A stretch of 64,000 nucleotides of DNA. Origin: Desulfurivibrio alkaliphilus AHT 2. Lineage in GTDB: Bacteria > Desulfobacterota > Desulfobulbia > Desulfobulbales > Desulfurivibrionaceae. Every line of letters starts with the position of its first letter. Position 1 is the first letter of the stretch. Below the pieces are notes generated by a model. That model saw nothing but the letters and a program-made list of their open reading frames with translations. It did not search any database and was not told where the DNA came from. The DNA lies in NCBI RefSeq assembly GCF_000092205.1, contig NC_014216.1, positions 1 through 64,000 on the forward strand, given 5' to 3'. Both the position numbers and the translations under genes were made by a program. Positions 24,378 through 41,382 of this stretch are shown piece by piece.

Positions 24378-25349
24378 ATGAGCAAAAAGTCTATTCCGGC
24401 CTGGCGGCAGCTGGCCGCCGATGAACTGGCCCGCCGGGCCGCCGTCGCCCATGAGCGCCTGCGGGCCTGCGAAAGCTGCCCCCGCCGCTGCCGGGTGGAC
24501 CGGCTGGCCGGCAAGCTCGGCTTCTGCCGCACCGGCGCCCTGGCCCAGGTGGCCAGCTACGGCCCTCATTTCGGGGAGGAAGAGCCCCTGGTGGGCCGGG
24601 GTGGCTCCGGCACCATCTTTTTCGGCAACTGCAACCTGGGCTGCGTCTTTTGCCAGAACTACGACATCAGCCACCCCCACGACGATCAGGCCGGCGGCAT
24701 GGAGGTGGACGCCGCCGCCCTGGCCGGCATGATGCTGGAGCTGCAGGAGCAGGGCTGCGTCAATATCAACCTGGTCACCCCCAGCCACGTGGTGCCCCAG
24801 ATCCTGGCGGCCCTGGTGGAGGCCCGCCGGCTGGGGCTTGCGCTACCCCTGGTCTACAACACCAGCTCTTACGACAGCCTGGCCACCCTGCAACTGTTGG
24901 CCGGGGTGGTGGATATCTACCTGGCCGATTTCAAATACTGGCGCCCGGCGGAGGCCAAACGCCTGCTGCGGGCCGAAGATTACCCACAGCGCGCCCGGGA
25001 GGCGATTGAAGAAATGCACCGCCAGGTGGGCGACCTGCAACTTGACGACCAGGGCCTGGCCCACCGCGGCCTGCTACTGCGCCACCTGGTGATGCCCGGG
25101 GGCCTGGCCGACAGCGAGGCCATTTTCCACTTCCTGGCCCAAAAGATCTCGCCCCACACCTACACCAACATCATGGAGCAGTACCACCCCAGCGGCCAGG
25201 CCCACCAATTCCCGCCCATCGACCGCCCCCTGGACCGGGCCGAATACCAACAGGCCCTGGAACTGGCCCACCGGGCCGGCCTGCACCGCCTGGATGAACG
25301 CGCCGCCGCCCGCCTGCTGCGCCGGCTGCTGCGCGGGGGCGGAGGGTGA
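24378..25349 (+). CDS. PflA-like radical SAM protein, cytoplasmic paralogue
   Basis: 323 residues. Same architecture as its upstream neighbour without the Tat-type leader: accessory cysteines CESCPRRCRVDRL and GFCRTG, radical SAM motif CNLGCVFCQNYDISH, then NINLVTPSHVVPQIL and DIYLADFKYW. Shared blocks such as LLLRHLVMPG and YTNIMEQYHP show a gene duplication. The family activates glycyl radical enzymes or modifies other proteins in its better-known members; no glycyl radical enzyme is in the window. The end is Arg/Gly-rich. Confidence 0.88.
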   Translation: MSKKSIPAWRQLAADELARRAAVAHERLRACESCPRRCRVDRLAGKLGFCRTGALAQVASYGPHFGEEEPLVGRGGSGTIFFGNCNLGCVFCQNYDISHPHDDQAGGMEVDAAALAGMMLELQEQGCVNINLVTPSHVVPQILAALVEARRLGLALPLVYNTSSYDSLATLQLLAGVVDIYLADFKYWRPAEAKRLLRAEDYPQRAREAIEEMHRQVGDLQLDDQGLAHRGLLLRHLVMPGGLADSEAIFHFLAQKISPHTYTNIMEQYHPSGQAHQFPPIDRPLDRAEYQQALELAHRAGLHRLDERAAARLLRRLLRGGGG

Positions 25350-26416: not shown

Positions 26417-27189
26417 ATGATTATTGCTGAATTGCTCAAGGCCGATGAGGGCAAAAACCTGGAGTTCAAGCAGGATCTTTCCTCGCCCCGCAACCTGCTC
26501 AAAACTCTGGTGGCCTTTGCCAACTCCGCCGGGGGCAGGGTCGTTGTCGGCGTGGCGGATAAAACGCGGGAGCCGGTGGGGATCGACAACCCGCTCGCGG
26601 CGCCCCCATCCGGGTCGTCTTTTTCGATGACCGTATCGAGGTGGAAAGCATGGGCATTCTCCTGCCCGGCCTGACCATCGAGGAGATCAAACAAGGCACT
26701 TCCCGTATTCGTAATCCGGTTATCGCCCGCGTTTTCAAAGAACTCAGCCTGATCGAACAGTGGGGCACCGGTGTGCGCCGCATATTTACCGAAGCGCGGG
26801 CACTGGGCCTGCCTGAACCCAAAATTGAAGAAATCGGCCTGCGCCTGCGCTTTACCGTTTATCTGGCAGAGCCGCACCGCATTCAGGTTGGCGAGACAAA
26901 GAGCCGGCCAAGGCCAGAGTCGGGGGTAGAGTCAGGGGTAGAGTCAGGGGTAGAGTCGAAGATGGCCGTAATGGTTCTTTCGTTTGTGAAAAAAGAATCT
27001 CTTTCTAAGTCTGAAATGGCAAAGCGGCTTGGTAAGGCCAAGCCAACCCGTTATCTCAATGACCTGATTGCCAGACTGTTGCGCGAAGGATATGTGGCAT
27101 ACACCATCCCCGACAAACCTAACAGCCGCCTACAAAAATACCGGCTAACCCGGAAAGGAAGGGAATTGCTGGAGGGAAACCAGCCATAG
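26417..27189 (+). pseudogene. AlbA/Schlafen-type ATP-binding gene, internally deleted and frameshifted (relic 1)
   Basis: The first part (26417-26590) encodes the AlbA_2 start: LLKADEGKNLEFKQDLSS and TLVAFANSAGGRVVVGVAD. The usual central 200 residues are missing. After a frame change, the C-terminal part (about 26600-27189) resumes with VVFFDDRIEVESMGILLPGL, SLIEQWGTGVRRIF and a winged-helix end (YTIPDKPNSRLQKYRLT). A 12-bp unit encodes the tandem VESG repeats (about 26928-26970). Intact relatives at 37899 and 39466 show what is missing. It could not make a normal protein; the C-terminal frame alone could still be translated from an internal ATG at 26650. Confidence 0.78.
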
Positions 27190-27315: not shown

Positions 27316-27399
27316 GGGGTGGGCCGCAAAGGTTTGGGGAATGATCGGGTAAGGCTTGGGGGAAGGGCATGTCGTCGAAACTGGATCGTATTTACTGGC
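27316..27399 (+). repeat. WYL-gene upstream repeat, copy B (belongs to the intact gene)
   Basis: Includes GGGTGGGCCGCAAAGG and CGGGTAAGGCTTGGGG and runs into the start of the intact WYL gene. Similarity with copy C also extends upstream through GCGGTTAAACTCGTGGCC (about 27298-27315). Confidence 0.8.
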
Positions 27400-28328
27400 T
27401 GTACCAGCAGCTCAAGGCCGACCGCCGCCCCTCCCGCGCCCGTTATTGCCGGCGGTTTGAGGTTGCCGCCAGCAGCTTCAAGCGTGATCTGGAATTCCTC
27501 CGCCACCGCCTCCAGGCCCCCATCGCCTACGACCGCCGCCTCAACGGTTATCGCCTGACCGACGACGCCTTCGAGCTACCCTCCTGCTGGTTCGACCCGC
27601 CCGCCCTGATCTTCCTGGCCGCCGCCTGCAATCAGCTTCGGCATCTGGACGGTGGCGGCTTCCGGGAGCTGGCGGACAAAATGGAAAACCTGCTCCGGCT
27701 CCACCACAGCGCCCTGCCGGCCCTGATCTCCTGCGAAAACGTGGGTTGGGTGAACTGCCCCAGCGGCCATCTGGACACCCTGCTGGAAGCCATGCTGGAC
27801 CGCCGGCTGCTCAACCTGGTTTATCATACCGGCCACAGCGACCGGACCAACCACGACGCCCCCCGCAAGGTGGAGCCTTACCGGCTGCATCACTATATGG
27901 GCACCTGGTACCTGATCGGCTACTGCCACCGGCGCCGGGCGGCCCGGATTTTCCAGGTGGCCCGGATCGCCGAGCTTACCCTGAGCGAAGAAAGCTTCTC
28001 CCGGCCGCGCTTCGACGTGGATGCCCACATCCGCCAATCTTACGGGATTTTCAAAGGCGGGGCGGACCTGCAACAGGTCACCCTGAAATTCGACCCCTAC
28101 ATGGCCCGTTTCGTTGGCCGGGAATTCTGGCACCCGGAGCAGCACACCGAACCAACCGCCGACGGCGGCCTGCTGCTGACCCTCCCGGTGACGAACCACA
28201 CGGAAATCATGATGCAGACCCTGCGCTACGGCCACCACGTCGAGGTCCTGGCCCCGCCGGAACTGCGCCGGCGGATGGTTGAGGAGATTCGGCGGATGGG
28301 TGGGGTGTATGGGGGTGAATGGGGGTGA
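27369..28328 (+). CDS. WYL-domain transcriptional regulator
   Basis: 319 residues. N-terminal winged-helix DNA-binding part (LDRIYWLYQQLKADRRPSRA, FEVAASSFKRDLEFLRHRL), then the WYL domain: LVYHTGHSDRTNHDAPRKVEPY, HHYMGTWYLIGYCHRRRAARIF and the C-terminal WCX part ending LAPPELRRRMVEEIRRMGGVYGG. WYL regulators sense nucleic acid or nucleotide ligands and frequently control phage-defence genes. Good purine-rich ribosome binding site (GGGGGAAGG). A nearly identical but internally deleted copy lies 1.4 kb downstream. The position between AlbA relics suggests it formerly or still regulates the island. Confidence 0.88.
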   Translation: MSSKLDRIYWLYQQLKADRRPSRARYCRRFEVAASSFKRDLEFLRHRLQAPIAYDRRLNGYRLTDDAFELPSCWFDPPALIFLAAACNQLRHLDGGGFRELADKMENLLRLHHSALPALISCENVGWVNCPSGHLDTLLEAMLDRRLLNLVYHTGHSDRTNHDAPRKVEPYRLHHYMGTWYLIGYCHRRRAARIFQVARIAELTLSEESFSRPRFDVDAHIRQSYGIFKGGADLQQVTLKFDPYMARFVGREFWHPEQHTEPTADGGLLLTLPVTNHTEIMMQTLRYGHHVEVLAPPELRRRMVEEIRRMGGVYGGEWG

Positions 28329-28498
28329 GCAATGAGCAGCTACGAACCACACGAAAGGAACCAAAGAGAACCACATATGGACACCGATGAACGTGGACTG
28401 GCCATCGAGGCAACTCACAAGAAATTCTTGTCGGTTCGGTTGGAGGGTAAGCTGGAAGTCAAACGGCTAACGGTTTGTAAACCTGAAAGATTTTCCAT
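28329..28498 (+). other. Gene-free remnant sequence between WYL and the RhuM-like relic
   Basis: An 88-codon frame crosses this stretch but has no recognisable domain. Its second half overlaps, in another frame, the RhuM-like relic. I read it as decayed sequence. Confidence 0.4.
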
Positions 28499-28648
28499 GA
28501 AATGGCAAAGGAATTGGCCGAAAGCGAGTTTGAAAAGTTTCACCAAAAACGGCTGTCAGATTCAACAAAAGCCGAGAGTGATTTTGACAAAGTTGTGAAA
28601 CAGCTCGAAGCCTCCAGAAAGGACGGCCGAGCAGACCGGGGCGGTTGA
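28499..28648 (+). pseudogene. C-terminal relic of a RhuM-like gene
   Basis: In the frame beginning at 28499, 49 codons read EMAKELAESEFEKFHQKRLS...ESDFDKVVKQLEASR before a stop. This matches the C-terminal pattern of RhuM-family proteins (LAxxEFEKFRxxQDRLxxSDFDKxxKxL). No upstream part of the gene remains. RhuM proteins are frequent companions of restriction and toxin modules. The assignment rests on short similarity only. Confidence 0.45.
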
Positions 28649-28775
28649 TCAGGTGATGGGGCAAATTTTTCTGGTCACCCTGGTGGCAGCCTTCGGGGGG
28701 CAAGCCATGTTCCTGACCGCCCACGAAGTTGATTGAGTTGCAACCGCTCCGGGTCGCGGTTAAACTCGTGGCCTT

Positions 28776-28859
28776 GGGGTGGGCCGCAAAGGTTTGGGGA
28801 ATGATCGGGTAAGGCTTGGGGGTGGGTATGTCGTCGAAACCGGATCGTATTTACTGGCT
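28776..28859 (+). repeat. WYL-gene upstream repeat, copy C
   Basis: Near-identical to copy B including the upstream GCGGTTAAACTCGTGGCC, GGGTGGGCCGCAAAGG and the first codons of the WYL gene. It belongs to the truncated second WYL copy. Confidence 0.8.
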
Positions 28860-29394
28860 GTACCAGCAGCTCAAGGCCGACCGCTGCCCCTCCCGCGCCC
28901 GCCTGGATCGCCGACCTTACCCTGAGCGAAGAAAGCTTCTCCCGGCCGCGATTCGATGTGGATGCCCACATCCGCCAATCTTACGGGATTTTCAAAGGCG
29001 GGGCGGACCTGCAGCAGGTCACCCTGAAATTCGACCCCTACATGGCCCGTTTCGTAGGCCGGGAATTCTGGCACCCGGAGCAGCGCACCCGGAGCAGCAC
29101 ACCGAAGCCACCGCCGACGGCGGCCTGCTGCTGACCCTCCCGGTGACGAACCACACGGAAATCATGATGCAGACCCTGCGCTACGGCCACCACGTCGAGG
29201 TCCTGGCCCCACCGGAACTGCGCCGGCGGGTGGTTGAGGAAATTCGGCGGATGGGTGGGGTTTATGGGGGGGTGAGCAATGGAGCAGGGGGGCATTTTTT
29301 CGGTTTTGGGAAATTTTCGGATGGGGTGGGTCACTATATGGGCCAGGGGGTGGTTACACTGGACGGCCACGGGATATGGCGATCTAGTTTTTAA
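28828..29394 (+). pseudogene. Second WYL-regulator copy, internally deleted
   Basis: Residues 1-25 match the intact gene (SKPDRIYWLYQQLKADRC). A deletion of roughly 520 bp then joins the codons after PSRAR to the region encoding ARIAELTLSEE in a shifted frame. A 14-bp tandem duplication (GCACCCGGAGCAGC at 29071-29084 and 29085-29098) brings the frame back, so the end again reads EQHTEATADGGLLLTLPVTN through RRRVVEEIRRMGG. The frame stays open to 29394 but lacks most of the WYL domain, so a regulator function is unlikely. Confidence 0.8.
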
Positions 29395-29596: not shown

Positions 29597-30496
29597 ATGG
29601 GTCGTCGTAAGTACGAATATCCACCAGTAATGGCGCCTATCGCAAGTGGACCTGTGGTCGAAATATCGACGCCTAGCTTATTGGACAGCTACCAAATGGC
29701 GCAGAGCTGGGCGAAGAGTTTCGGTGACAAGCTTGATGCAATCCGCAAGATTGAGAAATCGATAGACCACGCTGATGCGCGCTCATCTTTGTGGAAACGA
29801 CTTGAGTGGCTGGGAAGCTGGGCGCGTAAGAGAAAGGAGGACTGGAACACCGAAGCTAATCGCCTCGACTGTTTGCGTGCCAGCACGAAGAACGAAGCAG
29901 AGTCGATGCGGCTTCACACACAGTTCGATGTTGGTGACGATGGAAGTCCAACGTGGGCTCGTGTAGTAGATGCATTTGAGAAGCTCTCCACAGCGGAGAG
30001 AATTTGGGACGTAACCGCTCACGGTGGTCCTGATCACAGCAAATCATCAGCCAGTCAATTGGTTCAACGACATGATGTGCACTTTGGGGTTGACTCATTG
30101 CCCACAGTCCGACCAGATATCCGTTCACTTCGTATTGTGAGCGCCAATGGCCCTGATATTTGGATATATCCAAGCATGATCGCCGTCGGTGGCCTTTACG
30201 ATTCGCCGGCCCTTGTTGATCTTATGGAGGTGCAAGTTAGCTGCGCTCCAAAGAGATTCATTGAAAAAGAACAGCTGCCCAGCGACGCACGGCAGGTCGG
30301 ACATACGTGGCGTTATATAAATAAAGACGGAGGACCAGATCGCCGCTTCTCTGACAACCCTCAGTGGCCGGTCATGTTGTACGGCGAAATTGATCTGAAA
30401 TCGACGGGCGGGCTATTCGAGAGGTATCACGTTAGTGATATAGAGAAAGCTAGACAGTTTGCGCGCTGTCTCACTGAGCACAAAGCCACCATTTGA
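29597..30496 (+). CDS. Unknown protein, first gene of the helicase unit
   Basis: 299 residues, no domain that I can name. The N-terminal half is helical and charged (SYQMAQSWAKSFGDKLDAIRK, SLWKRLEWLGSWARKRKEDW). The C-terminal half has a compact block GHTWRYINKDGGPDRRFSDN followed by QWPVMLYGEIDLKSTGGLFE, a pattern seen in uncharacterised bacterial proteins, often beside nucleases. No signal peptide or membrane segment. Codon use is less GC-rich than in the flanking core genes. It lies 64 bases before the giant helicase-nuclease gene in the same direction, so joint expression is likely; it may be a partner or specificity subunit. Confidence 0.7.
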   Translation: MGRRKYEYPPVMAPIASGPVVEISTPSLLDSYQMAQSWAKSFGDKLDAIRKIEKSIDHADARSSLWKRLEWLGSWARKRKEDWNTEANRLDCLRASTKNEAESMRLHTQFDVGDDGSPTWARVVDAFEKLSTAERIWDVTAHGGPDHSKSSASQLVQRHDVHFGVDSLPTVRPDIRSLRIVSANGPDIWIYPSMIAVGGLYDSPALVDLMEVQVSCAPKRFIEKEQLPSDARQVGHTWRYINKDGGPDRRFSDNPQWPVMLYGEIDLKSTGGLFERYHVSDIEKARQFARCLTEHKATI

Positions 30497-30560
30497 GATA
30501 AGAATGCATACGTGGGGCGGACATAACCGCTTGCTCAACCGGGGTTCTTCGGCTTAACGA

Positions 30561-33500
30561 GTGGAATTGGCTGTTTTTTGTGGCGGATTACCGGGTAAAT
30601 ACTATTGGGGCTATAGACATTTGATACTGGAGAAACCCATAAATGTCTCCATCCACTGCGAGGCAGCGGCGAAGTTAAACTTTGCCTGTCATCAGAGCGC
30701 GTTCGCTTTACTGCGAGAGTTGCGGATCGACAACGCTGACCGTGAAACGCGATTGGACGACGTACTCGTCACCCTGTCGTCGAACCCCTCTTTCCTGAAG
30801 CCCAAATCCTGGCGGCTGGCTCGGATTGCTCCTGAAGGGTCGATCTCGATCAAGGATCGGGATATTGAACTTGACGGAGGGTTTCTCCTTAACCTGGCTG
30901 ATGCTGTGCGCGGCACCATCACCATCACCGCCGAAAAGAACGGAGTGGTTCTGGCGGAAGAAACAAAATCCGTCGATTTGCTGGCTTATAACGAATGGGG
31001 CGGCGCAGGTTACATGCCCGAATTGCTTGCTGCATTCTCAATGCCCAACGACCCGGCGGTGGATCGTGTGCTGCGGGATGCAAGCCTCGTCTTGCGAAAA
31101 GCAGGAAAACTTGACGGCATTGATGGTTACAAGGCGGGGAGTCGTCAGCGGGTATGGGAAATCGCGTCTGCCGTCTATACCGCCATCTGCAACCTCGGTA
31201 TTACCTATTCAGTGCCCCCGGCTAGCTTCGAGCGGGACGGACAAAAAATCCGGTTGCCCAGCCAAGTTTTGGAAAATCGCGTAGCAACCTGTCTCGATTG
31301 CACCATGCTGATCTCCTCGGCATTGGAGCAGGCCGGGCTCAATCCCATCATTGCACTACCCGAGGGCCATGCGGTAGTTGGCGTGTGGTTGCAGCCCGAA
31401 GAGTTCACAACCATCGTCGTCGACGAAGCAGAAACCCTGAGAAAGCGCATTCAGCTCAAGGAACTTGTGCTGATTGAGACGACCTATGCAACATCGCATC
31501 CGTCTCCACCATTTTCCAAGGCCGTTGCGGCTGCGGCGGAAGTGATTGCACCAGACAAGGATAACACCTTCAACTCGGCTATCGATATCCGCCGTGCCCG
31601 TGCCCATCGTATTTCTCCTCTCGGGCTGAAATCCAGCCAACCTTTGGGGCCAACAGGAGACGAGGGGAGAGAACGTATCGAACTTGTCCTTGAAGAGGCT
31701 CCGGTACTGCCCGACTTCGACGATGGCGCCGAGGATGAAGAGGCGCTTGACACGTCAGTTAGTCGACTGGAGCGATGGCAGCGCAAACTATTGGACCTCT
31801 CCGCGCGAAACCCGCTTCTCAATCACAAATCCACTAAAACCAGCTTGCGTTTTATCTGCCCTGCGCCGGGACTCCTGGAGGAAAAGTTGGCCGAAGGGGC
31901 ACGAATTTTGATCCAGCCGGTTCCGCGCCCCACCAGTAGAGGGCAGGATGAAGAGCTTCACCGGCAACGAACCGGTGAGATTATCGCCGAAGAGTATGCC
32001 AGCAATGCGCTTGCGAAGAAGCAAGTCCTGGTCGACCTGCCGGGAGAGGAACTCGCCCGCCGCGCGATTGAAATTTACAGAAAGGCCCAAACCGCCCTTC
32101 AGGAGGGTGGCGCAAACACACTCTATTTAGCACTCGGTTTCCTGCTGTGGAAACGTGACGAGAAGGATCAGCGTCGGCTCCGTGCGCCGCTGATTCTGGT
32201 GCCCATCACTTTGGAACGAAAATCCGTCCGTAGCGGACTTCGAATGTTGGCCCATGACGATGAGCCACGCTTTAACACCACCCTTTTGGAGATGCTGCGA
32301 AAAGATTTTGAAATCGATATCCGGGGGTTGGACGGTGAACTGCCGGGAGATCAAAGAGGTATCGATGTCAGCAAGATTTGGAACAAAGTTCGCAAGGCGG
32401 TGAAAGATACGCCAGGTTTCGAGGTCGTTGAGGATGTGGTGCTGGGCCATTTTTCCTTTGCCAAATATCTCATGTGGAAGGATCTGGTCGACCGTACCGA
32501 TGCGTTACGGCAGAGCGCGATTGTCAAACACCTTATCGATACGCCGCGTGACCCTTATCCCAGCGATATAGCTTTTGTGGACGGTGCCGACGTTGACCGG
32601 CATTTCAAGCCGTCCGATATGCTGACTCCGCTGCCGGCGGACTCATCGCAAATGGCGGCAATCGCTACCGCGGACCGGGGGAAAGATTTCATTATCATCG
32701 GCCCGCCTGGAACAGGCAAGAGCCAGACTATCAGCAATCTGATCGCACATACGTTGGGCAAAGGAAAGACAGTACTTTTTGTTTCGGAAAAAACCGCAGC
32801 GTTGGATGTCGTATACCGTCGTTTGAGAGACATCGGGCTGGGTCGATTCTGTTTGGAGCTTCACTCCAACAAGGCTCGTAAAGTTGATGTGCTTGCGCAA
32901 TTGAGTGATGCATGGGAACACCATCAAAGCGCCAAGGCAGAAGCCTGGGAAAAGGAAGCGGAACGTCTGCGGAGCTTGCGCGATCAACTGAATTGTGTTG
33001 TGGACCGATTACATATTCCCCGCCGGAATGGCATGACCGCCCATTACGCCATCGGCGTGAAAGTCCGGGACGAGGATTTAGCGTCGCGTGCGGTGTTTTC
33101 CTGGCCGTCTTCTGATCAGCATGATGAGGACCAACTTGACGCAATGCGTGAGGCGGTCGAGAGACTCCGTGTTCAAGTCGCTGCAGTGAGGGTTGTTACT
33201 GACAGCCCGTTCCAGTTGGTGTCGCAAGGTGACTGGTCTCCACAATGGGAAGGTCAGGTGATAGAGCGGGCTGGTCGTTTATCTACGGCGGCGTCTGCGG
33301 CAGATCGCGCTTGTGAAGCACTTCTGGATGTCACCGGAATCGCTGTGCCGGATCGTTCGATGGCGCGCATGGATGCCATTGCCGAATTGGCAACGGTGTT
33401 GCTGGAGTCCTATCGCAAGCAGGCAGCCTACGCCTTGGGGTCGAACGGACCAGATTGTATCGAGGCGCTGGAAGAGGCTGTGCAGCGGCTTAAAGGCTAT

Positions 33501-36500
33501 GCGGAAGCGCAGGCGGCGCTGAGTTGCGCTTACGAACCTATGGCTTGGCGAGAACTGGACGGGGATGACATCGCCCGGCGCTGGCAGGAAGCGGAAGCTG
33601 CCTGGTGGCCGAAGAGTTTTTTCGCCCGCCGTCGCTTGGTCAAGGATATGAAGCTAAGAGGGGCACTTGGGGTTCCAGACCCGGTTTGCGACGCGCCGGT
33701 GCTGAAGCAGTTGCGCGTGGAAGGCGAAGCCATCGACCGTCTGGACAAACAGCTTACGGAGTTTAAAGATTGGCAGGGACATACAACCAGTCCCGATACG
33801 GCGTTAGCCTTGCAGGCCCTCGGGCAACGGGCACGGCTGGCAGTCGGCAGACTGGTGGACGATGCATCGACATTGGTGGACATTCGCAACAAGGTCCGAA
33901 CCCTGATGCATGACGGCAACGATTTGCTTGCGCCTGAGGCTGCGGTTGGTCGTGCGGCACAGGAGTTTTTGGCAGCCAACCGCGAGTTGCAAGAAGCTTG
34001 TGGCGCGTTTGAGGCTATTGCCGGCCAGTCGGTGAGGAAGCACTTTGCGGAAACGGGAAGAGCGCTACCTGCCATTCTGGAGACGGCCGAAACCATCGCG
34101 GCGCGCCATGCCGAATTGCGCGAATGGTGTGGTTGGCGCCGCCGTCGCGCGGAGGCAATGGACCTGGAGTTGGGGCCTTTGGTGGAAGCAATCGAGAAGG
34201 GTCATGTCCCGACCGAAGAAATTGAAGCGACTTTTGAAGCCTCATATTGCACATGGTGGTCGGGTGCGCTGATCGGAGAAGACGAGGCTTTACGAACCTT
34301 CTCGACGCCCGAGCATGTTGCGACAATTGAGAAATTCCGTGAGATCGACAGTCAATTTCAAAACCTTACGGCGGCCTACATTGCTGCCAAGTTGACGGGC
34401 GATCTCCCCGACGCCGATGACGTCAAGCGAAGTTCATCCTGGGGCGTTCTTCGCCATGAAATCCAAAAGAAAAGGCAACATAAACCGGTTCGAGAATTAA
34501 TCCGGGATATACCCGACGTTCTGACCAAGCTGGCTCCCTGCCTCATGATGTCGCCGCTTTCCGTCGCCCAGTATTTGCCCGCTGATCAGGCGCTATTCGA
34601 TGTCGTCATCTTTGATGAAGCATCGCAAATAACCACTTGGGATGCGGTCGGCTCGTTGGCGCGTGGCCGACAGGCCATTGTTGCCGGCGACCCGAAACAA
34701 ATGCCGCCAACGAACTTCTTTGCGCGAGCTGATGACGACCCGGATGGCGAGGTGGCTACGGGAGGGGATTTGGAGAGCATCCTGGATGAAATGTTGGGGG
34801 CGGGTATTCCGCAGCGCACCCTTAACCTGCATTATCGGTCGCGTAAGGAAAGTCTCATCGCGTTCTCCAACAGCCGGTACTATGGGAATGAACTCGTCAC
34901 TTTTCCCGCCCCAATACACCCAGATCGTGGTGTTCGCTTGATCAAGTCTGACGGTTTTTACGCACGTGGCAAGGCGCGCCATAACGAAGGGGAAGCAAAG
35001 GCAATCGTTGCAGAGATTTTACGAATACTAACCCACGAAAATGAAGCAGTGCGGAGACAATCCATCGGCGTCGTGACCTTCAATACCGAACAGCAGTCCC
35101 TGATCGAAAATCTGCTGGACCAAGCGCGTGCCAAAAATCCACGGATCGAATGGGCTTTTTCCATGGACAGCACGCACGAGCCGGTGTTTGTAAAAAATCT
35201 GGAAACCGTGCAGGGGGACGAGCGGGATGTAATTTTGTTCAGTGTCACTTATGGGCCGGATCAGGGTGGTCATGTCACCATGAATTTTGGCCCGCTCAAT
35301 CGTGACGGGGGAGAGCGTCGCCTGAATGTTGCCATGACGAGAGCGCGTTCGGAAATGCTGGTGTTTTCCACGCTTAGTCCTGATCGTATCGACCTTTCGC
35401 GAACGCAGTCTCGAGCGGTAGCGGATTTGAAACACTTCCTGGAATATGCCGAACGCGGCCCCTCGGCACTCAGTGCGGCAGTTTATGGCCCCATGGGAGA
35501 TTTTGATTCACCGTTTGAGTCTGCCGTTGCACGTGCGTTGCGCGATAAGGGCTGGGACATCCACCCGCAGGTCGGTGTGTCCGCCTACCGGATCGATCTG
35601 GGTATAGTTCACCCGGACAAGCCGGGGGTCTACCTTGCCGGCATCGAGTGCGATGGTGCCATGTATCACAGTTCCGCTTTTGCACGAGAGCGCGACAAAA
35701 TTCGCCAGTCGGTACTGGAGGGGCTTGGCTGGACCTTGTTACGCGTGTGGTCGACGGATTGGTGGACCAATAGTGCCAAGGCTTTGGAAACTCTCCACCA
35801 GGCGCTGAAAGGCCGCCTGGACGTGGATCGGAGAGAGCGCGAAAAGGCACCTCGCAACATGGAGGAAAGCGCCGTGGGGGCATCTTCACGCTCTGAGCAT
35901 GTTGATGGCTCCGGTGAAGAGTTTTCCATGCCGGCTATGTCCGCCGACGTGACAGTTGACGAGAATGGTGCATCAAACCAGGATTTCGAGCCGCATGGAG
36001 GTTATATTGCCGCCAGCCCTGCGATGCCGGAACCGGCAGCTAACATTATGCCATCAAAAAGAATGCAGGGGCCTTCAGGTAATCTGTGTGATAGCTATGT
36101 GCCGGCGCACTTCAGTGGAGAGGGTTATAAGGCTGATCCTGATATGTTCTATTCCGAGGAATATAAGCCCCGTCTTTCGGCCATGATCGATCATGTTATT
36201 GATACGGAAGGACCAATCCATGAAGATTTGTTGGTCCGACGCATCGCCCGCCATCACGGGTTTCAGCGCGCGGGTCGTCAGATCCGCGACATCGTGATCA
36301 GCATTGCCAAGCGTCGCAGGGGACGCACGAAAGAAGACGTTGGTATGTTTTTTTGGCGCAAGGGAACGGTCAAAGAGCGCCTTGTTCCCGCCCGCTATAA
36401 AGGCCGTGACGATGAATTGCGAAAGGTGGAATATATTTGCAATGAGGAAATCAGTGCAATTGTAAAACTGTTGTCCATCGGCAGTGATCCCATTGAATTG

Positions 36501-36587
36501 GCGCGCCGGATCGGCATTGCACGGTTGAGCCAGGGTGCTCGAAGCCGTTTGAGTAAAGTATTTGCTTGGAATTCGCCGCGTGGGTGA
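30561..36587 (+). CDS. Giant DUF4011/SF1 helicase with Vsr-like nuclease and DUF3320 domains
   Basis: 2008 residues, GTG start. Domains in order: an N-terminal region; a transglutaminase-like segment with C244 (RVATCLDCTML) and H270 (LPEGHAVVGVW); DUF4011 beginning about residue 400 (RWQRKLLDLSARNPLLNHKS); SF1 helicase motif I GPPGTGKSQT (K720) and VLFVSEKTAALDVV; a long coiled insertion (about 780-1290); motif II VIFDEASQIT (D1352, E1353) and AGDPKQMPPT; the C-terminal helicase lobe GVVTFNTEQQ, VQGDERDVILFSVTYG and RRLNVAMTRARS; a Vsr/MTES_1575-type endonuclease about 1660-1740 (IECDGAMYHS, RDKIRQSVLEGLGW, LRVWSTDWW); and a DUF3320-like C-terminal domain about 1865-1925. Such proteins occur in defence islands and are likely to restrict foreign DNA. 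Lower-GC codon use suggests transfer. Confidence 0.9.
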   Translation: MELAVFCGGLPGKYYWGYRHLILEKPINVSIHCEAAAKLNFACHQSAFALLRELRIDNADRETRLDDVLVTLSSNPSFLKPKSWRLARIAPEGSISIKDRDIELDGGFLLNLADAVRGTITITAEKNGVVLAEETKSVDLLAYNEWGGAGYMPELLAAFSMPNDPAVDRVLRDASLVLRKAGKLDGIDGYKAGSRQRVWEIASAVYTAICNLGITYSVPPASFERDGQKIRLPSQVLENRVATCLDCTMLISSALEQAGLNPIIALPEGHAVVGVWLQPEEFTTIVVDEAETLRKRIQLKELVLIETTYATSHPSPPFSKAVAAAAEVIAPDKDNTFNSAIDIRRARAHRISPLGLKSSQPLGPTGDEGRERIELVLEEAPVLPDFDDGAEDEEALDTSVSRLERWQRKLLDLSARNPLLNHKSTKTSLRFICPAPGLLEEKLAEGARILIQPVPRPTSRGQDEELHRQRTGEIIAEEYASNALAKKQVLVDLPGEELARRAIEIYRKAQTALQEGGANTLYLALGFLLWKRDEKDQRRLRAPLILVPITLERKSVRSGLRMLAHDDEPRFNTTLLEMLRKDFEIDIRGLDGELPGDQRGIDVSKIWNKVRKAVKDTPGFEVVEDVVLGHFSFAKYLMWKDLVDRTDALRQSAIVKHLIDTPRDPYPSDIAFVDGADVDRHFKPSDMLTPLPADSSQMAAIATADRGKDFIIIGPPGTGKSQTISNLIAHTLGKGKTVLFVSEKTAALDVVYRRLRDIGLGRFCLELHSNKARKVDVLAQLSDAWEHHQSAKAEAWEKEAERLRSLRDQLNCVVDRLHIPRRNGMTAHYAIGVKVRDEDLASRAVFSWPSSDQHDEDQLDAMREAVERLRVQVAAVRVVTDSPFQLVSQGDWSPQWEGQVIERAGRLSTAASAADRACEALLDVTGIAVPDRSMARMDAIAELATVLLESYRKQAAYALGSNGPDCIEALEEAVQRLKGYAEAQAALSCAYEPMAWRELDGDDIARRWQEAEAAWWPKSFFARRRLVKDMKLRGALGVPDPVCDAPVLKQLRVEGEAIDRLDKQLTEFKDWQGHTTSPDTALALQALGQRARLAVGRLVDDASTLVDIRNKVRTLMHDGNDLLAPEAAVGRAAQEFLAANRELQEACGAFEAIAGQSVRKHFAETGRALPAILETAETIAARHAELREWCGWRRRRAEAMDLELGPLVEAIEKGHVPTEEIEATFEASYCTWWSGALIGEDEALRTFSTPEHVATIEKFREIDSQFQNLTAAYIAAKLTGDLPDADDVKRSSSWGVLRHEIQKKRQHKPVRELIRDIPDVLTKLAPCLMMSPLSVAQYLPADQALFDVVIFDEASQITTWDAVGSLARGRQAIVAGDPKQMPPTNFFARADDDPDGEVATGGDLESILDEMLGAGIPQRTLNLHYRSRKESLIAFSNSRYYGNELVTFPAPIHPDRGVRLIKSDGFYARGKARHNEGEAKAIVAEILRILTHENEAVRRQSIGVVTFNTEQQSLIENLLDQARAKNPRIEWAFSMDSTHEPVFVKNLETVQGDERDVILFSVTYGPDQGGHVTMNFGPLNRDGGERRLNVAMTRARSEMLVFSTLSPDRIDLSRTQSRAVADLKHFLEYAERGPSALSAAVYGPMGDFDSPFESAVARALRDKGWDIHPQVGVSAYRIDLGIVHPDKPGVYLAGIECDGAMYHSSAFARERDKIRQSVLEGLGWTLLRVWSTDWWTNSAKALETLHQALKGRLDVDRREREKAPRNMEESAVGASSRSEHVDGSGEEFSMPAMSADVTVDENGASNQDFEPHGGYIAASPAMPEPAANIMPSKRMQGPSGNLCDSYVPAHFSGEGYKADPDMFYSEEYKPRLSAMIDHVIDTEGPIHEDLLVRRIARHHGFQRAGRQIRDIVISIAKRRRGRTKEDVGMFFWRKGTVKERLVPARYKGRDDELRKVEYICNEEISAIVKLLSIGSDPIELARRIGIARLSQGARSRLSKVFAWNSPRG

Positions 36588-36858: not shown

Positions 36859-37839
36859 ATGAACCCTCTGCAGGAGCACATCAAACACTTCACCCGCCTG
36901 AAACGCGCACCGGGGCCGATCTGGTCGGAAGCGTCCAGGGGCAGGGCGCCGCATAAGCCGCTGTTGTTGCTGGCGGTGCTTGACTTGGCCCACCGGGGGG
37001 TGATCAACTCCCCCTTTATTTCCGTTACCGATGACTTGGTGGAGTTGAACGAGCTTTTCAACCTTTACTGGCGGCGGATCGTGCCGGTGGGGCAGTCCCC
37101 CAGCAGCATCGCCTTCCCGTTTTCCCGCCTGGACCGCGAACCTTTCTGGGAACTGGTCCCCCAGCCGGGACAAACCATCACTACGCCGTTGATCAACAAT
37201 ACCTCGTCGGTCAGTTACCTGCGGCGCTACGCCCTGGGAGCAAAACTGGCCGACGGGATATTCCAGGCCATGCAGAGCGAAGATGGCAGGAGTGCGTTGC
37301 GGGAAGCCCTGCTCCTGTCCTGTTTTTCGACCAGTGCTCAGGCCCTGTTGCGGGAACAGTCGCGGATCAACCGTGAGGCCTACGATTACAGCCGGTTGCT
37401 GGAAGAACAGGTCCACCGGCAGGTAAAGGAGGCTATGGCGGCCGACCGCTACAGCCCGGAGGCGCGGAGCCAGGGGTTCCGGCGGTTGGTGGTGAAGACC
37501 TATGACCACCGTTGCGCCCTGTGCGGCATCCGCATCGTCACCCCGGACGGCCATACCGTGGTGGAGGCGGCCCATATCGTTCCGTGGCGCCGGACCAGAA
37601 ACGACGATCTCCGCAACGGCATGGCCCTTTGCCGTACCTGCCACTGGGGGTTCGATAAAGGTATGTTGGGGGTTTCCGACCAGTACACGGTTCTCACCGC
37701 CCCCACCATTGGCATCGACCCCAACTTCCCCGGCCTGCTGTCTATGCTGGCCGGCCGGGCCATCATCCCACCGGTTGAACGCGACCACTGGCCGTCCCGG
37801 GAATATCTGGCCGCCCACCGCCGGGAGTGGCGCCTGTGA
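36859..37839 (+). CDS. HNH endonuclease with probable sulfur-binding-type N-terminal domain
   Basis: 326 residues. The N-terminal 160 residues resemble the DNA sulfur-binding domain of ScoMcrA-like restriction enzymes (COG3440): RGRAPHKPLLLLAVLDLAHRG, then FNLYWRRIVP and IAFPFSRLDREPFWEL. The C-terminal HNH/zinc module has CALCG (C219, C222), VVEAAHIVPWRR (H239), DLRNGMALCRTCHWGFDKG. The prediction is a modification-dependent nuclease cutting phosphorothioated or otherwise modified DNA; no dnd genes are in the window, as expected for a cell that attacks such modification. No clear ribosome binding site. Its sequence is GC-rich again, unlike the preceding helicase gene, so it may have arrived separately. 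Confidence 0.8.
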   Translation: MNPLQEHIKHFTRLKRAPGPIWSEASRGRAPHKPLLLLAVLDLAHRGVINSPFISVTDDLVELNELFNLYWRRIVPVGQSPSSIAFPFSRLDREPFWELVPQPGQTITTPLINNTSSVSYLRRYALGAKLADGIFQAMQSEDGRSALREALLLSCFSTSAQALLREQSRINREAYDYSRLLEEQVHRQVKEAMAADRYSPEARSQGFRRLVVKTYDHRCALCGIRIVTPDGHTVVEAAHIVPWRRTRNDDLRNGMALCRTCHWGFDKGMLGVSDQYTVLTAPTIGIDPNFPGLLSMLAGRAIIPPVERDHWPSREYLAAHRREWRL

Positions 37840-37898: not shown

Positions 37899-39464
37899 TT
37901 GAAACCATCCGAAGTCAAAGAAATTCTCACCACCGGCGAGGGGTTGCACGTGGAGTTCAAGGAGGCCCGCGACCGGCTGCCCGGTTCCTTCTTCGACACG
38001 GTTTGCGCATTCTTGAACACCGATGGCGGCACCATATATCTCGGGGTAAATGATAACGGCGGGGTCACCGGGGTGGAGCCCAGGGCCGTGGCCCGGCTGA
38101 AAAGCGACATCGCCAACCTTTCCAACAACCCCCGGCAGCTTGACCCACCCTTTTTGCTCTTCCCCCACGAGCTGGCGATTGACGGCAAAACGGTGATCGC
38201 CGTTCAGGTGCCGCTAAGTTCCCAGATTCACCGGCACGGCGGCGAGATCATGCTGCGCAGCGAGGATGGCGATTACCGCCTGCGCGGCACCCACCAACTG
38301 GCCGGGCTGGCCAACCGCAAGCTGAGCCTGTTTAGCGAACAGCGGGTCTTGCCCCACCTGACCGTCGCCGACCTGCGGCCGGAGCTGTTCGACAAGGCCC
38401 GGAGCCTGATGCGAATCGGCGACCGCCGCCACCCCTGGCTGGCCTTCAGCGATGAAGAGTTGCTGAAAGTGGGCGGATTTTTCAACCGCGATCCCAACAG
38501 CGGCCGCCCCGGTCTTACCCTGGCGGCGGCCCTGCTTTTCGGCAGCGATGAAGTTATCCAAAACGCCGTCCCCGGCTACAAGTTCGATTGCCTGCTGCGC
38601 CGCCGCAACCAGGAACGCTACGACGACCGCCTGATCGTCCGCACCAACCTGATCGACGCCTACGACCTGATGATGGGCTTCATCGAAAAGCACCTCGATG
38701 ATCCCTTCCACTTGGAGGGCGATTTACGGATCAGCCTGCGGGAAAAAATCTTCCGGGAGGTCGTCTCCAATATCATCGCCCACCGGGAGTACACCAGCGC
38801 CGCCCCGGCCACCATCAAAATCTACCGCGACCGGGTGGAGCTGGAAAACCCCCACGTGGCCCACTTCTTCGGCCGGATCACCCCCGACAATGTGCGGCCC
38901 TTCCCCAAAAATCCGACCATCTGCAAGTTGATGATCCAACTCGGCCGCTTCGACGAGCTTGGCTCCGGGGTGATCAACGTCCACCGCTATCTGCCGCTCT
39001 ACGCCAATGGCGCCACCCCGGTCTTCCAGGAAACGGGCCACAGTTTCGTCACCACCCTGCCGTTGACTGTGGACCGGGAAGGACAGGGGAGTGAACGGGC
39101 AACCGAACACGCCACCCCCGAAGTCGGCCAACAAGTTACCCAACAGGTCATCCAACAAGTCACCCAACAGGTCGGCAGTGCTGACGATTATTCACGACTG
39201 CTACCTGTTCTAAGGGCATGTGCGACAAAATCACTTTCAAATAAAGAGTTGCAGGCGGCTGCTGGAATCAGGGATCGCTCAACCTTCCACATCAACTACC
39301 TCACCCCGTTACTTAAACTGAACCTGCTGGAACGTACCATTCCGGACAAACCGACCAGCAGCAAGCAAAAATACCGCCTTACCGAAAAGGGCAGGCAACT
39401 GCTGGCGGCAGCTAACCACAGCACCGATAAACGCAATGAGTGGCCAGGGGACACAGGGGACTGA
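37899..39464 (+). CDS. AlbA/Schlafen-type ATP-binding protein with RecG-like ATPase and winged helix
   Basis: 521 residues, TTG start. N-terminal AlbA_2 (Schlafen) domain: LTTGEGLHVEFKEAR, FLNTDGGTIYLGVNDNGGV. The middle (about 265-395) has a GHKL-like fold (LREKIFREVVSNIIAHREY, FDELGSGVINVHRYL). A glutamine/valine tandem linker (QQVTQQVIQQVTQQV, 39124-39171) leads to a C-terminal winged helix ending TIPDKPTSSKQKYRLTEKG. The family is annotated as transcriptional regulator or RecG-related helicase, but lacks helicase motifs; roles in defence or tRNA/DNA binding are suggested. The stop lies two bases before the next AlbA-type gene. A deleted copy of this gene lies at 42419-42705. Confidence 0.85.
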   Translation: MKPSEVKEILTTGEGLHVEFKEARDRLPGSFFDTVCAFLNTDGGTIYLGVNDNGGVTGVEPRAVARLKSDIANLSNNPRQLDPPFLLFPHELAIDGKTVIAVQVPLSSQIHRHGGEIMLRSEDGDYRLRGTHQLAGLANRKLSLFSEQRVLPHLTVADLRPELFDKARSLMRIGDRRHPWLAFSDEELLKVGGFFNRDPNSGRPGLTLAAALLFGSDEVIQNAVPGYKFDCLLRRRNQERYDDRLIVRTNLIDAYDLMMGFIEKHLDDPFHLEGDLRISLREKIFREVVSNIIAHREYTSAAPATIKIYRDRVELENPHVAHFFGRITPDNVRPFPKNPTICKLMIQLGRFDELGSGVINVHRYLPLYANGATPVFQETGHSFVTTLPLTVDREGQGSERATEHATPEVGQQVTQQVIQQVTQQVGSADDYSRLLPVLRACATKSLSNKELQAAAGIRDRSTFHINYLTPLLKLNLLERTIPDKPTSSKQKYRLTEKGRQLLAAANHSTDKRNEWPGDTGD

Positions 39465-39465
39465 A

Positions 39466-41130
39466 ATGGAGATGAGTCAACCGAAACTGCAAAAACTGCT
39501 GGACCACCTGGTCGCCTCTTGGGAAAACGAAGTGGTGGAATTCAAGCAGGCAGGCAAAGATTATCCCACCGACAAAATCGGGGAGTATTTTTCCGCTCTG
39601 GCCAACGAGGCCAATTTGCGTAATCAGGAAAGAGCTTGGCTTGTTTTCGGGGTCAACAATAAAAGCAGACAAATTGTCGGTTCCGACTACCGGCTGAACC
39701 CGGAACGGCTGCAAAGTACCAAGATGCAGATTGCCGAAAACACGGAACCAAGTGTAACTTTTCGCAATATTCATCAACTGCGAAATTCAAAGGGTCGGGT
39801 GGTACTCTTCGAGATTCCGGCAGCCCCCCGTGGAATGCCGATTGCGTGGAAAGGACACTACTATGCCCGGGCCGGGGAAAGCCTTACCCACCTTGGCCTG
39901 GACAAGCTCGATGAAATTCGTCAACAGACCATGGCTGGCGATTGGTCGGCCAGGCTGGTCGCGGATGCCACCTTCTCCCACCTTGACGAAGGCGCCTTAC
40001 AGAAGGCACGCGAATCTTTTGCTCGCAAATATGCCAATAGGTTCCCGGCAGAAGAAGTCATGGCCTGGCCATTGGCAACTTTCCTTGATCGCGCCAAGTT
40101 GACTCAGGATGGCAAAATCACCCGGGCAGCAATCCTGTTGCTGGGGCGACCGGAATCTGCCTATCTCCTTTCACCGCATCCAGCGCAGATGACCTGGAAG
40201 CTGGAGGGTCCGGAACGGGCCTATGAGCACTTCGGCCCGCCTTTTCTGCTGAACACCACGCGGCTGTATCGAAGAATTCGCAATATTCAGCTTCGTCTCC
40301 TGCCCGATGAGGCTCTGTTTGCGGTGGAAGTATCCAAATACGATCAGAAAGTCGTGTTTGAAGCCCTCCACAACTGTATCGCCCATCAGGATTACAGCCG
40401 CAACGGCCGTATCCTGGTGACCGAGTTGCCGGACAAGCTGATTTTTGCAAACGAAGGTGGTTTTTTTGAGGGTAAGCCGGAAGATTACGTAACCGGCGAC
40501 AAAACGCCCCATCGATACCGGAATGCCTTTTTGGCCCAGGCAATGGCCGAGTTGAACATGATCGACACCATGGGCTACGGCATATACTCCATGCACCTCG
40601 GGCAGGCCAGGCGCTATTTCCCGATGCCGGACTACGAACTGGGCGAACCGGCGGCGGTTAAGATGACAGTCTATGGCAGCGTAGTGGACCCTGCATACAG
40701 CCGCCTGCTGATTCAAAAAACCGACTTGCCGCTTGATGAGATTCTGGCGTTGGACCGGGTACAGAAACGACTGCCTATTTCCGATGATATGATCAGGCGT
40801 TTACGTCGCGATGGCCTTATTGAAGGGCGTAAGCCGAATCTGCACGTTTCCGCAACCGTGGCCAAGGTGACAGCCAGCAAGATCGATTACATCTGGACCC
40901 GGGCGCAGGACGATGACTACTATTGCAAGTTGATCACCGACTACCTGAAAAAATTCGGCAGAGCCACCCGGGGGGAAATTGACAAGCTCCTGCTGAATAA
41001 ATTGAGTGATGCCCTGGGTCAGGAACAGAAGAAAAAGAAGGTCGGCAATCTACTTACAAAACTTCGCAGATCAAAAATGATCCGCAACGACGGCACCCGT
41101 GCCAAGCCAAAGTGGGTATTGGCCGAATAG
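39466..41130 (+). CDS. Second AlbA/Schlafen-type ATP-binding protein
   Basis: 555 residues from the ATG at 39466 (ATG at 39472 also possible). AlbA_2 domain: ENEVVEFKQAGKDYPTDKIG, ERAWLVFGVNNKSRQIVG, GHYYARAGESLTHLG. The GHKL-like part has FEALHNCIAHQDYSRNG and NEGGFFEGKPEDYV; the wing-helix region DEILALDRVQKRLPISDDMI follows. The C-terminus is lysine-rich and ends PKWVLAE. This subtype (ATP-binding protein, often called a putative DNA-binding regulator) accompanies restriction systems in many genomes. It is only distantly similar to its neighbour, so the pair is two subfamilies, not a recent duplication. Confidence 0.85.
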   Translation: MEMSQPKLQKLLDHLVASWENEVVEFKQAGKDYPTDKIGEYFSALANEANLRNQERAWLVFGVNNKSRQIVGSDYRLNPERLQSTKMQIAENTEPSVTFRNIHQLRNSKGRVVLFEIPAAPRGMPIAWKGHYYARAGESLTHLGLDKLDEIRQQTMAGDWSARLVADATFSHLDEGALQKARESFARKYANRFPAEEVMAWPLATFLDRAKLTQDGKITRAAILLLGRPESAYLLSPHPAQMTWKLEGPERAYEHFGPPFLLNTTRLYRRIRNIQLRLLPDEALFAVEVSKYDQKVVFEALHNCIAHQDYSRNGRILVTELPDKLIFANEGGFFEGKPEDYVTGDKTPHRYRNAFLAQAMAELNMIDTMGYGIYSMHLGQARRYFPMPDYELGEPAAVKMTVYGSVVDPAYSRLLIQKTDLPLDEILALDRVQKRLPISDDMIRRLRRDGLIEGRKPNLHVSATVAKVTASKIDYIWTRAQDDDYYCKLITDYLKKFGRATRGEIDKLLLNKLSDALGQEQKKKKVGNLLTKLRRSKMIRNDGTRAKPKWVLAE

Positions 41131-41139
41131 CCTGTGGCC

Positions 41140-41225
41140 TTGCAGAAAGAAAACAATGTTTTGCAGAAAGGAATTTTTTAAAAATCAAGTTGAATCAGCG
41201 GGTTATTTTTTCTGCTTGCAGAAAG
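41140..41225 (+). repeat. Three short direct repeats TTGCAGAAAG
   Basis: Identical decamers at 41140-41149, 41161-41170 and 41216-41225 in an AT-rich gap after the second AlbA-type gene. They could be regulator sites or slippage products; spacing of 21 and 55 bases is irregular. Confidence 0.4.
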
Positions 41226-41304
41226 AAAAAAGAAAAAACCTGATTTGCCACCTACTGGCACAGCCGGGAATTTGTTCCCTTCGACCCCAACGATGCCGGC
41301 CACC

Positions 41305-41382
41305 ATGTTTGAAGAAAACCGCAGGGAAGGAGTAGCCGCCCAGGTAAACTTCGCGGAGAAAGTAGAGGAGTTACAATCATGA
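41305..41382 (+). pseudogene. 25-codon tail of a lost gene, coupled to AlbA relic 3
   Basis: ATG at 41305 opens 25 codons ending NFAEKVEELQS, and the stop TGA overlaps the ATG of the next gene as ATGA. The open frame extends further upstream in phase (to about 41272). The coding-like character and tight overlap suggest the 3' end of a deleted upstream cistron, or a real leader peptide. Confidence 0.35.

What the first reader, a model, noticed from the sequence alone, without database searches (positions are those of the whole stretch)
29597..36587. Two-gene unit: unknown protein plus 2008-residue helicase-nuclease
The large protein combines a transglutaminase-like segment, DUF4011, SF1 helicase, Vsr-like nuclease and a DUF3320-like domain. 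It follows a 299-residue unknown gene 64 bases upstream. Composition differs from the flanks and the unit sits in a decaying defence-like island. The pairing with the unknown protein, which has a WRYINKDGGPDRRF block, might define a system variant not yet described.
Basis: partly seen in the sequence, partly recalled or inferred. Interest (0 to 1): 0.65.

Follow-up and report, generated by a model that had tools for sequence, protein, structure and literature searches.

The report
Anti-phage helicase-nuclease with unnamed partner
A bacterium from Egyptian soda lakes carries a known type of giant anti-virus helicase-nuclease directly behind a small gene of an unnamed protein family that elsewhere sometimes sits beside, or is fused to, parts of other anti-virus machines, so the small gene may be a shared helper for such defences.

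Summary
Both genes are real and intact. The 2008-aa protein is not new: it scores 2162 bits against NCBIfam 'anti-phage protein ProA' (cut-off 1500) and 1224 bits against PADLOC PDC-S37. Its transglutaminase / SF1 helicase / Vsr nuclease / winged-helix layout was described in 2013 (PMC3710099). The 299-aa protein has no Pfam, NCBIfam or PADLOC match. It belongs to PHROG_17982 (unknown function): usually DUF4236 + helical hairpin + a C-terminal domain with the block NKDGxPDRRF, predicted PH-like. This copy lacks DUF4236. Pairing with ProA is rare: 2 of 16 ProA loci read. But the domain lies next to an SF1 helicase-nuclease gene, same strand, in the window, a P. aeruginosa plasmid, Anaeromyxobacter, Azospirillum and, more weakly, Uhrbacteria; the label needs 5 changes on a tree of 135 domains. 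It is also fused to a Shango SngA protein and to a ProA-type C-terminus in Salinibacter. Best reading: a ProA defence gene with an accessory adaptor/sensor. ProA is known; I found no description of the partner family's link to helicase-nucleases. Function of the pair is untested.

The parts
29597..30496 (+). 299-aa accessory gene (P0001), PHROG_17982 / 'GGPDRRF' family, without the usual N-terminal DUF4236
29672..29905 (+). helical hairpin (residues 26-103) of P0001
   Evidence: AlphaFold2 model, pLDDT 93
29906..30493 (+). C-terminal domain of P0001 (residues 104-299), predicted PH-like barrel with C-terminal helix
   Evidence: AlphaFold2 models; Foldseek / VIA-align; PHROG_17982 matches residues 103-297 at 7e-39
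30308..30349 (+). conserved WRYINKDGGPDRRF block (residues 238-251)
   Evidence: W238, G245, D248, R250 invariant in 47 aligned proteins, N242, K243, F251 nearly so
30561..36587 (+). ProA-type anti-phage helicase-nuclease, 2008 aa
   Evidence: NCBIfam NF058533 2162 bits, cut-off 1500; PADLOC PDC-S37 1224 bits
31008..31550 (+). transglutaminase-like segment (about residues 150-330; Cys244, His270); weakly supported in this copy
   Evidence: published for this architecture in PMC3710099
31785..32297 (+). DUF4011
32640..32891 (+). SF1 helicase, N-terminal half (AAA_11), Walker A GPPGTGKS at 32700-32723
34776..35369 (+). SF1 helicase, C-terminal half (AAA_12)
35514..35807 (+). Vsr-like nuclease MTES_1575, motif residues present (RIDLG, GIECDG)
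36141..36290 (+). DUF3320 (winged helix per PMC3710099)

Best explanation
The unit is a horizontally acquired two-gene defence locus. The large gene is a ProA-type helicase-nuclease: the SF1 motor, loaded through its winged-helix end and DUF4011 region, moves along invading DNA and the Vsr-like domain cuts it. The small gene makes a soluble hairpin protein with a PH-like domain that acts as adaptor or sensor: it binds a partner through the conserved NKDGxPDRRF face and recruits or releases the helicase-nuclease. Shown: family membership, intact catalytic motifs, a confident fold prediction, recurrent adjacency of the partner domain with helicase-nucleases, and its fusion to a Shango SngA protein and to a ProA-type C-terminus. 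Inferred: co-transcription, physical interaction, DNA cleavage, anti-phage activity of this copy, and the adaptor role. My confidence: ProA identity about 0.97, DNA-targeting defence about 0.75, functional partnership about 0.55.
For: ProA over its cut-off. Walker A lysine and the DE of Walker B in 15 of 15 aligned ProAs; nuclease D1679 and D1698 in 14 of 14 that reach that part, E1696 in 13 of 14 (the Bacteroides copy differs). 64-bp same-strand spacing. Adjacent same-strand partner + helicase-nuclease in Anaeromyxobacter oryzae (182 bp; PDC-S37 1223.8 bits, against 1224.4 for the window protein), a P. aeruginosa plasmid (103 bp; ProA 2366 bits) and four Azospirillum (10-11 bp in three, the fourth, L096, overlapping as called). 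The label 'helicase nearby' (8 rows) needs 5 changes on a 135-row ML tree, all 5 forced by well-supported branches; gains and losses are not told apart. The domain is fused at the N-terminus of SngA in a SngABC operon and, as a partial match, lies in one frame with a segment matching ProA model positions 1692-1903 (the DUF3320 end) in Salinibacter (1.2e-25).
Against: Only 2 of 16 ProA loci read have the partner, so ProA does not generally need it. 74 of 80 genome loci of the partner family show no helicase-nuclease adjacent (36 of the 80 are contig pieces under 20 kb), nor do 48 of 48 viral loci, 15 of 16 plasmid loci, 4 of 5 loci of the phylum sample and one more of the class, G564, read with 1.5-kb flanks only. 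Gene order differs (partner first in the window and Anaeromyxobacter, second elsewhere). The Azospirillum and Uhrbacteria helicases are only distant relatives without DUF4011. No interaction or activity was tested.
Confidence: 0.5

Rival explanations
1. Neighbours by island crowding. ProA is a stand-alone defence gene; the 299-aa gene is an independent cargo or defence gene of mobile elements that landed upstream, and the other adjacencies are of the same kind.
For: Most relatives read are without a helicase. In viral contigs the family lies within 1 kb of a contig end in 15 of 48 against 4.1 expected, a cargo-like position (near-copies included). ProA neighbours vary from locus to locus. Gene order is not conserved.
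Against: Operon-like spacing on the same strand in four lineages. A rough chance estimate gives 0.006 adjacent cases expected in 80 loci against 6 seen in 3 lineages (it ignores that defence genes cluster and rests on one phylum's helicase density). Fusions to SngA and to a ProA-type C-terminus.
Confidence: 0.35
2. The 299-aa protein is a regulator or restraint of ProA (antitoxin-like): it keeps the helicase-nuclease silent and lets go on infection.
For: In this locus it is upstream on the same strand; the hairpin + PH-like architecture suits protein binding (inference).
Against: 14 of 16 ProA loci lack it, so ProA is normally tolerated alone; in the P. aeruginosa and Azospirillum loci it is the second gene.
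Confidence: 0.15
3. The 299-aa gene is a decaying remnant: a DUF4236 family protein that lost its N-terminal domain, with no function left.
For: 43 of 47 aligned relatives have DUF4236 and this one does not; long branch on the tree (1.13).
Against: Open frame, all invariant residues kept, confident fold; no DUF4236-like remnant seen by eye in a three-frame reading upstream.
Confidence: 0.1

Closest known systems
ProA anti-phage protein (NCBIfam NF058533) / PADLOC PDC-S37
   Same: The 2008-aa protein is a full-length member: model positions 1-1878 of 1903, 2162 bits over a cut-off of 1500; same domain order.
   Different: Carries an upstream partner gene; 14 of the other 15 ProA loci read here lack one.
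Hhe (NCBIfam NF042953, PADLOC Hhe), DUF4011 anti-phage helicase
   Same: Related helicase-nuclease core (841 bits).
   Different: Far below the Hhe cut-off of 2000; this is ProA, not Hhe.
MTES_1575-type protein of Anantharaman et al. 2013 (PMC3710099)
   Same: Transglutaminase + SF1 helicase + Vsr REase + winged helices overlapping DUF3320 (passages read).
   Different: That protein also bears a HEPN domain; none was matched here.
Shango (SngABC)
   Same: One SngA (Arthrobacter plasmid) carries the same PH-like domain at its N-terminus.
   Different: The large gene here is not a Shango component; only the accessory domain is shared.
PHROG_17982 / DUF4236-bearing proteins
   Same: P0001 residues 103-297 match PHROG_17982 at 7e-39; DUF4236 relatives align over the hairpin and C-terminal domain.
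   Different: P0001 lacks DUF4236 and lies beside ProA.
ApsAB / DdmDE (two-gene helicase-nuclease + Argonaute-like partner)
   Same: General plan of a helicase-nuclease plus a partner protein (PMC11096173, passages read).
   Different: There the motor is SF2 and the partner Argonaute-like; here SF1 and PH-like. Analogy of plan only.

Membership tests
ProA (NCBIfam NF058533) | score over the curated cut-off (1500 bits) | tested here: met
   2162 bits, model 1-1878 of 1903
ProA (NCBIfam NF058533) | domain order TG-like / DUF4011 / SF1 helicase / MTES_1575 / DUF3320 | tested here: met
   the TG-like part is weak by Pfam in this copy (0.11), Cys and His conserved in 15 of 15
ProA (NCBIfam NF058533) | intact Walker and nuclease residues | tested here: met
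ProA (NCBIfam NF058533) | protects against phage | not testable with these tools
Hhe (NCBIfam NF042953) | score over the curated cut-off (2000 bits) | tested here: not met
   841 bits
Shango | SngA, SngB and SngC genes together | tested here: not met
   No Sng model among the PADLOC matches (E <= 0.01) of the ten window proteins scanned
PHROG_17982 | profile match over the C-terminal domain | tested here: met
   7e-39 over residues 103-297, profile 183-379 of 390
DUF4236 proteins (PF14020) | N-terminal DUF4236 domain | tested here: not met
   0 families in P0001; 43 of 47 alignment members match
PH-like superfold | structural match of the C-terminal domain to PH-fold structures | tested here: inconclusive
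   By title, the listed VIA-align rows are mainly PH, FERM/PTB and Pob3/Rtt106-type structures; best Z 6.6, 95 aligned, rmsd 3.2, under the 8 that would be clearer; Foldseek has none at E <= 0.001 and also lists other folds such as RseB
Two-gene 'ProA + GGPDRRF' variant | recurrent adjacency in independent lineages | tested here: met
   Window and P. aeruginosa plasmid (ProA proper), and a PDC-S37-type helicase in Anaeromyxobacter; but 2 of 16 ProA loci only
Two-gene 'ProA + GGPDRRF' variant | both genes needed for protection | not testable with these tools
   -

The most novel reading that the evidence does not exclude
The NKDGxPDRRF domain (PH-like; no Pfam family was matched by it) is a shared recognition or adaptor module of bacterial immunity, plugged separately into several helicase-nuclease systems: beside ProA, beside PDC-S37-type and other SF1-Vsr helicases, fused to Shango SngA, and fused to a ProA-type C-terminus. 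The window pair would be a stripped form in which the module works without DUF4236 as a free subunit of ProA.
Probability: 0.4. Interest if true: 0.72.

Novelty: new variant of a known kind. Interest (0 to 1): 0.5.

Why it matters
How large helicase-nucleases of the DUF4011 class recognise invaders I did not find described in the held papers (searches; open-licence papers only). A partner domain reused beside or inside several unrelated helicase systems would be a direct handle on that question. It can be tested with one two-gene clone, single deletions and a pull-down. It would also give a first role to a large family of unknown proteins found on plasmids and prophages.

Tried and rejected
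P0001 alone in genome contigs found nothing by exact peptide patterns; the alignment A1 then found 346 relatives, of which the tool kept the best 80.

ProA by sequence against the PDB gives only SF1 helicase cores; the TG-like region gave no PDB sequence match, nor did the 299-aa family beyond chance.

Reading the 299-aa protein as TerB_N was rejected: in the Arthrobacter SngA the domain lies at residues 55-251, before TerB_N at 316-523.

Literature: no paper on ProA as an anti-phage protein, on 'Prometheus' as a guessed name, or on DUF4236 with defence was seen in the held library, which lacks most subscription journals.

Dropped from counts: L054 (weak helicase match 6.7 kb upstream of the partner gene) is not among the 6 of 80. 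L110 is counted but weak: a Fic gene lies between (1121 bp), and its close relative L079 has no helicase. The neighbour clustering used 78 of the 80 loci, because L077 and L127 gave no focal ORF. For the tree, domain pieces under 140 residues (the Salinibacter fusion among them) and identical rows were left out: 148 loci gave a domain, 135 rows used; the label is more clustered than in 500 shuffles, as the four Azospirillum rows make it. In the chance estimate the 38 helicase genes were counted by hand at 130 bits or more, one N-terminal-only match left out, and genome size taken as 395 x 3.3 Mb; it is rough.

Phylum counts: the A1 profile reported 26 of 395 genomes, but 21 of these match only the DUF4236 end; 5 reach the C-terminal domain.

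Full report
Setting. The window is the start of a 3,097,763-base single-contig genome, the length published for Desulfurivibrio alkaliphilus AHT2 (PMC5016858, passages read). The unit lies between a radical-SAM gene (24378-25349) and gap-pgk-tpi genes (42884 on; these flank names are my reading of the translations), in a stretch with DUF3800, WYL-WCX, HNH and three Schlafen-AlbA genes. In genome G002 of the same genus the same flanks are 6.8 kb apart, with a relative of the HNH gene but without the unit. P0001 was found in none of the four other genomes of the genus searched, and no ProA match was reported in the two of them included in the phylum search. So this is a variable, defence-rich spot.

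The large protein. It is a full-length ProA: 2162 bits against NF058533 (cut-off 1500), and its best PADLOC match is PDC-S37 (1224 bits). Pfam finds DUF4011, both SF1 halves, MTES_1575 and DUF3320. The transglutaminase-like part is weak by Pfam: DUF553 E 0.11 here; over 13 members scanned, DUF553 in 5 (best 0.063) and Transglut_core in 3 (best 0.0042), with unrelated families at similar values (DUF6197 in 2, best 0.0021). It rests more on Cys244 and His270, kept in 15 of 15 aligned proteins, and on the published reading. Walker A lysine and the Walker B acidic pair are kept in 15 of 15; nuclease D1679 and D1698 in 14 of 14 that reach that part and E1696 in 13 of 14, the Bacteroides copy differing (two of the 15 rows are near-copies). 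The same architecture, with a HEPN domain added, was described in 2013 (PMC3710099, passages read). In the phylum 6 of 395 sampled genomes have a ProA over the cut-off. In plasmids, relatives at E <= 1e-30 occur in 376 of 72,556 records, 242 of them in Klebsiella. This part is a new member of a known family.

The small protein. It has no match in Pfam, PADLOC or NCBIfam but matches PHROG_17982, unknown function, at 7e-39. Searches found relatives in 35 plasmid records, 2 phage records, 346 genome stretches of which the best 80 were kept and 48 viral contigs. In an alignment of 47, 43 have DUF4236 and 5 an SH3 domain; P0001 has neither. The C-terminal domain is the shared core: W238, G245, D248, R250 and others are invariant. 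AlphaFold2 gives a confident model (pLDDT 93 whole, 90 for the domain alone): a helical hairpin, then a barrel closed by a C-terminal helix. Fold comparison points to the PH superfold: SIN1, MTMR6, PLC, FAK-FERM, Rtt106 and Pob3 rows, best Z 6.6 with 95 residues at 3.2 A. Foldseek has no match at E <= 0.001 and lists some other folds (RseB) among the PH rows, so I call it PH-like, not proven. In 12 of 47 rows the hairpin holds a strongly hydrophobic stretch, perhaps a membrane anchor; P0001 does not.

Are the two genes a pair? Among the 80 genome loci, 7 hold an SF1 helicase match to ProA. Leaving out L054 (6.7 kb away, weak), 6 remain: Anaeromyxobacter oryzae, four Azospirillum and one Uhrbacteria. 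36 of the 80 loci are contig pieces under 20 kb, so absences there are incomplete. A clustering of neighbours within 6 kb, done on the 78 loci with a focal ORF, puts this helicase among its largest clusters (6 loci); the other clusters of 5-6 loci are LysR-type genes scattered 1-5 kb away and neighbours shared within Bacteroidota (the LysR naming is my reading of the printed N-termini). In Anaeromyxobacter the partner gene ends 182 bp before a helicase that scores 1223.8 bits on PDC-S37, with the same gene order as in the window. The Azospirillum helicases (200.9 bits on ProA in the one scanned, no DUF4011) end 10-11 bp before the partner gene in the two pairs measured; one search gives the same spacing for L102 and an overlap, as called, for L096. 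The Uhrbacteria case is weaker (Fic gene between, 1121 bp).

ProA side: of 16 ProA loci read (window, five in the phylum, ten plasmid records), two have the partner: the window and a P. aeruginosa plasmid, where an under-annotated DUF4236-NKDGxPDRRF gene starts 103 bp after a 2366-bit ProA. One of the ten plasmid ProAs (L042) scored as two pieces of 1218 and 1179 bits and was not flagged as over the cut-off. The ten were chosen by hand from 60 listed of 376 records. Fifteen further, more distant helicase loci of the phylum have no partner. Other negatives: 48 of 48 viral loci, 15 of 16 plasmid partner loci, 4 of 5 loci of the phylum sample and G564 of the class, read with 1.5-kb flanks, have no such helicase.

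On a maximum-likelihood tree of 135 domains the 8 helicase-linked rows need 5 changes, all forced by supported branches, so the link was made, or lost, repeatedly. A rough chance estimate for adjacency within 1.2 kb is 0.006 in 80 loci against 6 in 3 lineages; it does not allow for clustering of defence genes and uses one phylum's helicase density.

Fusions. In an Arthrobacter plasmid the domain (residues 55-251, 3e-35) is the N-terminus of SngA in a SngA-SngB-SngC Shango operon (312, 598 and 928 bits). [quoted passage not shown] In a Salinibacter plasmid a 632-aa protein combines the domain (7.8e-14, a partial match, model positions 62-170 of 198) with a segment matching ProA model positions 1692-1903 (1.2e-25) and two DUF3320 stretches; that model stretch holds little beyond the DUF3320 end, so the segment is ProA-type rather than surely ProA. 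These fusions are the strongest hints that the domain works with such machines.

Judgement. The large gene is a known anti-phage family; this copy looks intact. The small gene is most likely an accessory adaptor or sensor, at about 0.55; the main rival is coincidence in defence-rich mobile DNA. Whether the pair works as one system needs the two-gene clone and single deletions.

Noticed in passing
window 36859-37839: HNH protein resembling phosphorothioate-DNA restriction enzymes (NF045808, 116 bits, below the cut-off of 180); a relative lies at the same spot in genome G002.
   Followed up: partly
window 37899-41876: Three Schlafen-type AlbA_2 genes in a row, the last one short, plus a partial HATPase_c_4 / Fic-like_C gene at 26641-27189.
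   Followed up: no
window 27369-29394: A WYL-WCX regulator and a shorter fragment downstream of it, with the WCX end kept.
   Followed up: no
L040 8824-11895: Shango SngA with the NKDGxPDRRF domain fused at its N-terminus, beside SngB and SngC with an extra exonuclease domain on the helicase.
   Followed up: partly
L221 9001-10899: Salinibacter plasmid protein joining the domain (partial match) to a ProA-type C-terminus with two DUF3320 stretches, preceded by an annotated ion-transporter gene.
   Followed up: partly
L062, L065, L124, L126, L128: Long relatives carry AAA + AAA_lid_6 ATPase domains, three of the five also an FtsK_gamma domain; in L062, L126 and L128 (and L067, a short relative) a gene of one ion-channel-like cluster is adjacent: possibly another defence-like system.
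   Followed up: no
L224, L227: Rhizobium plasmid relatives beside hxsA-hxsC-hxsB (His-Xaa-Ser) genes; L224 also near TIR, caspase and E2-like genes.
   Followed up: no
L153-L200 (viral contigs): Family members lie within 1 kb of a contig end in 15 of 48 against 4.1 expected, as prophage cargo genes do; near-copies are included.
   Followed up: partly
L044 11680-12777: The P. aeruginosa partner gene is annotated only from 11974 as 'hypothetical protein'; the open frame with DUF4236 starts at 11680.
   Followed up: yes
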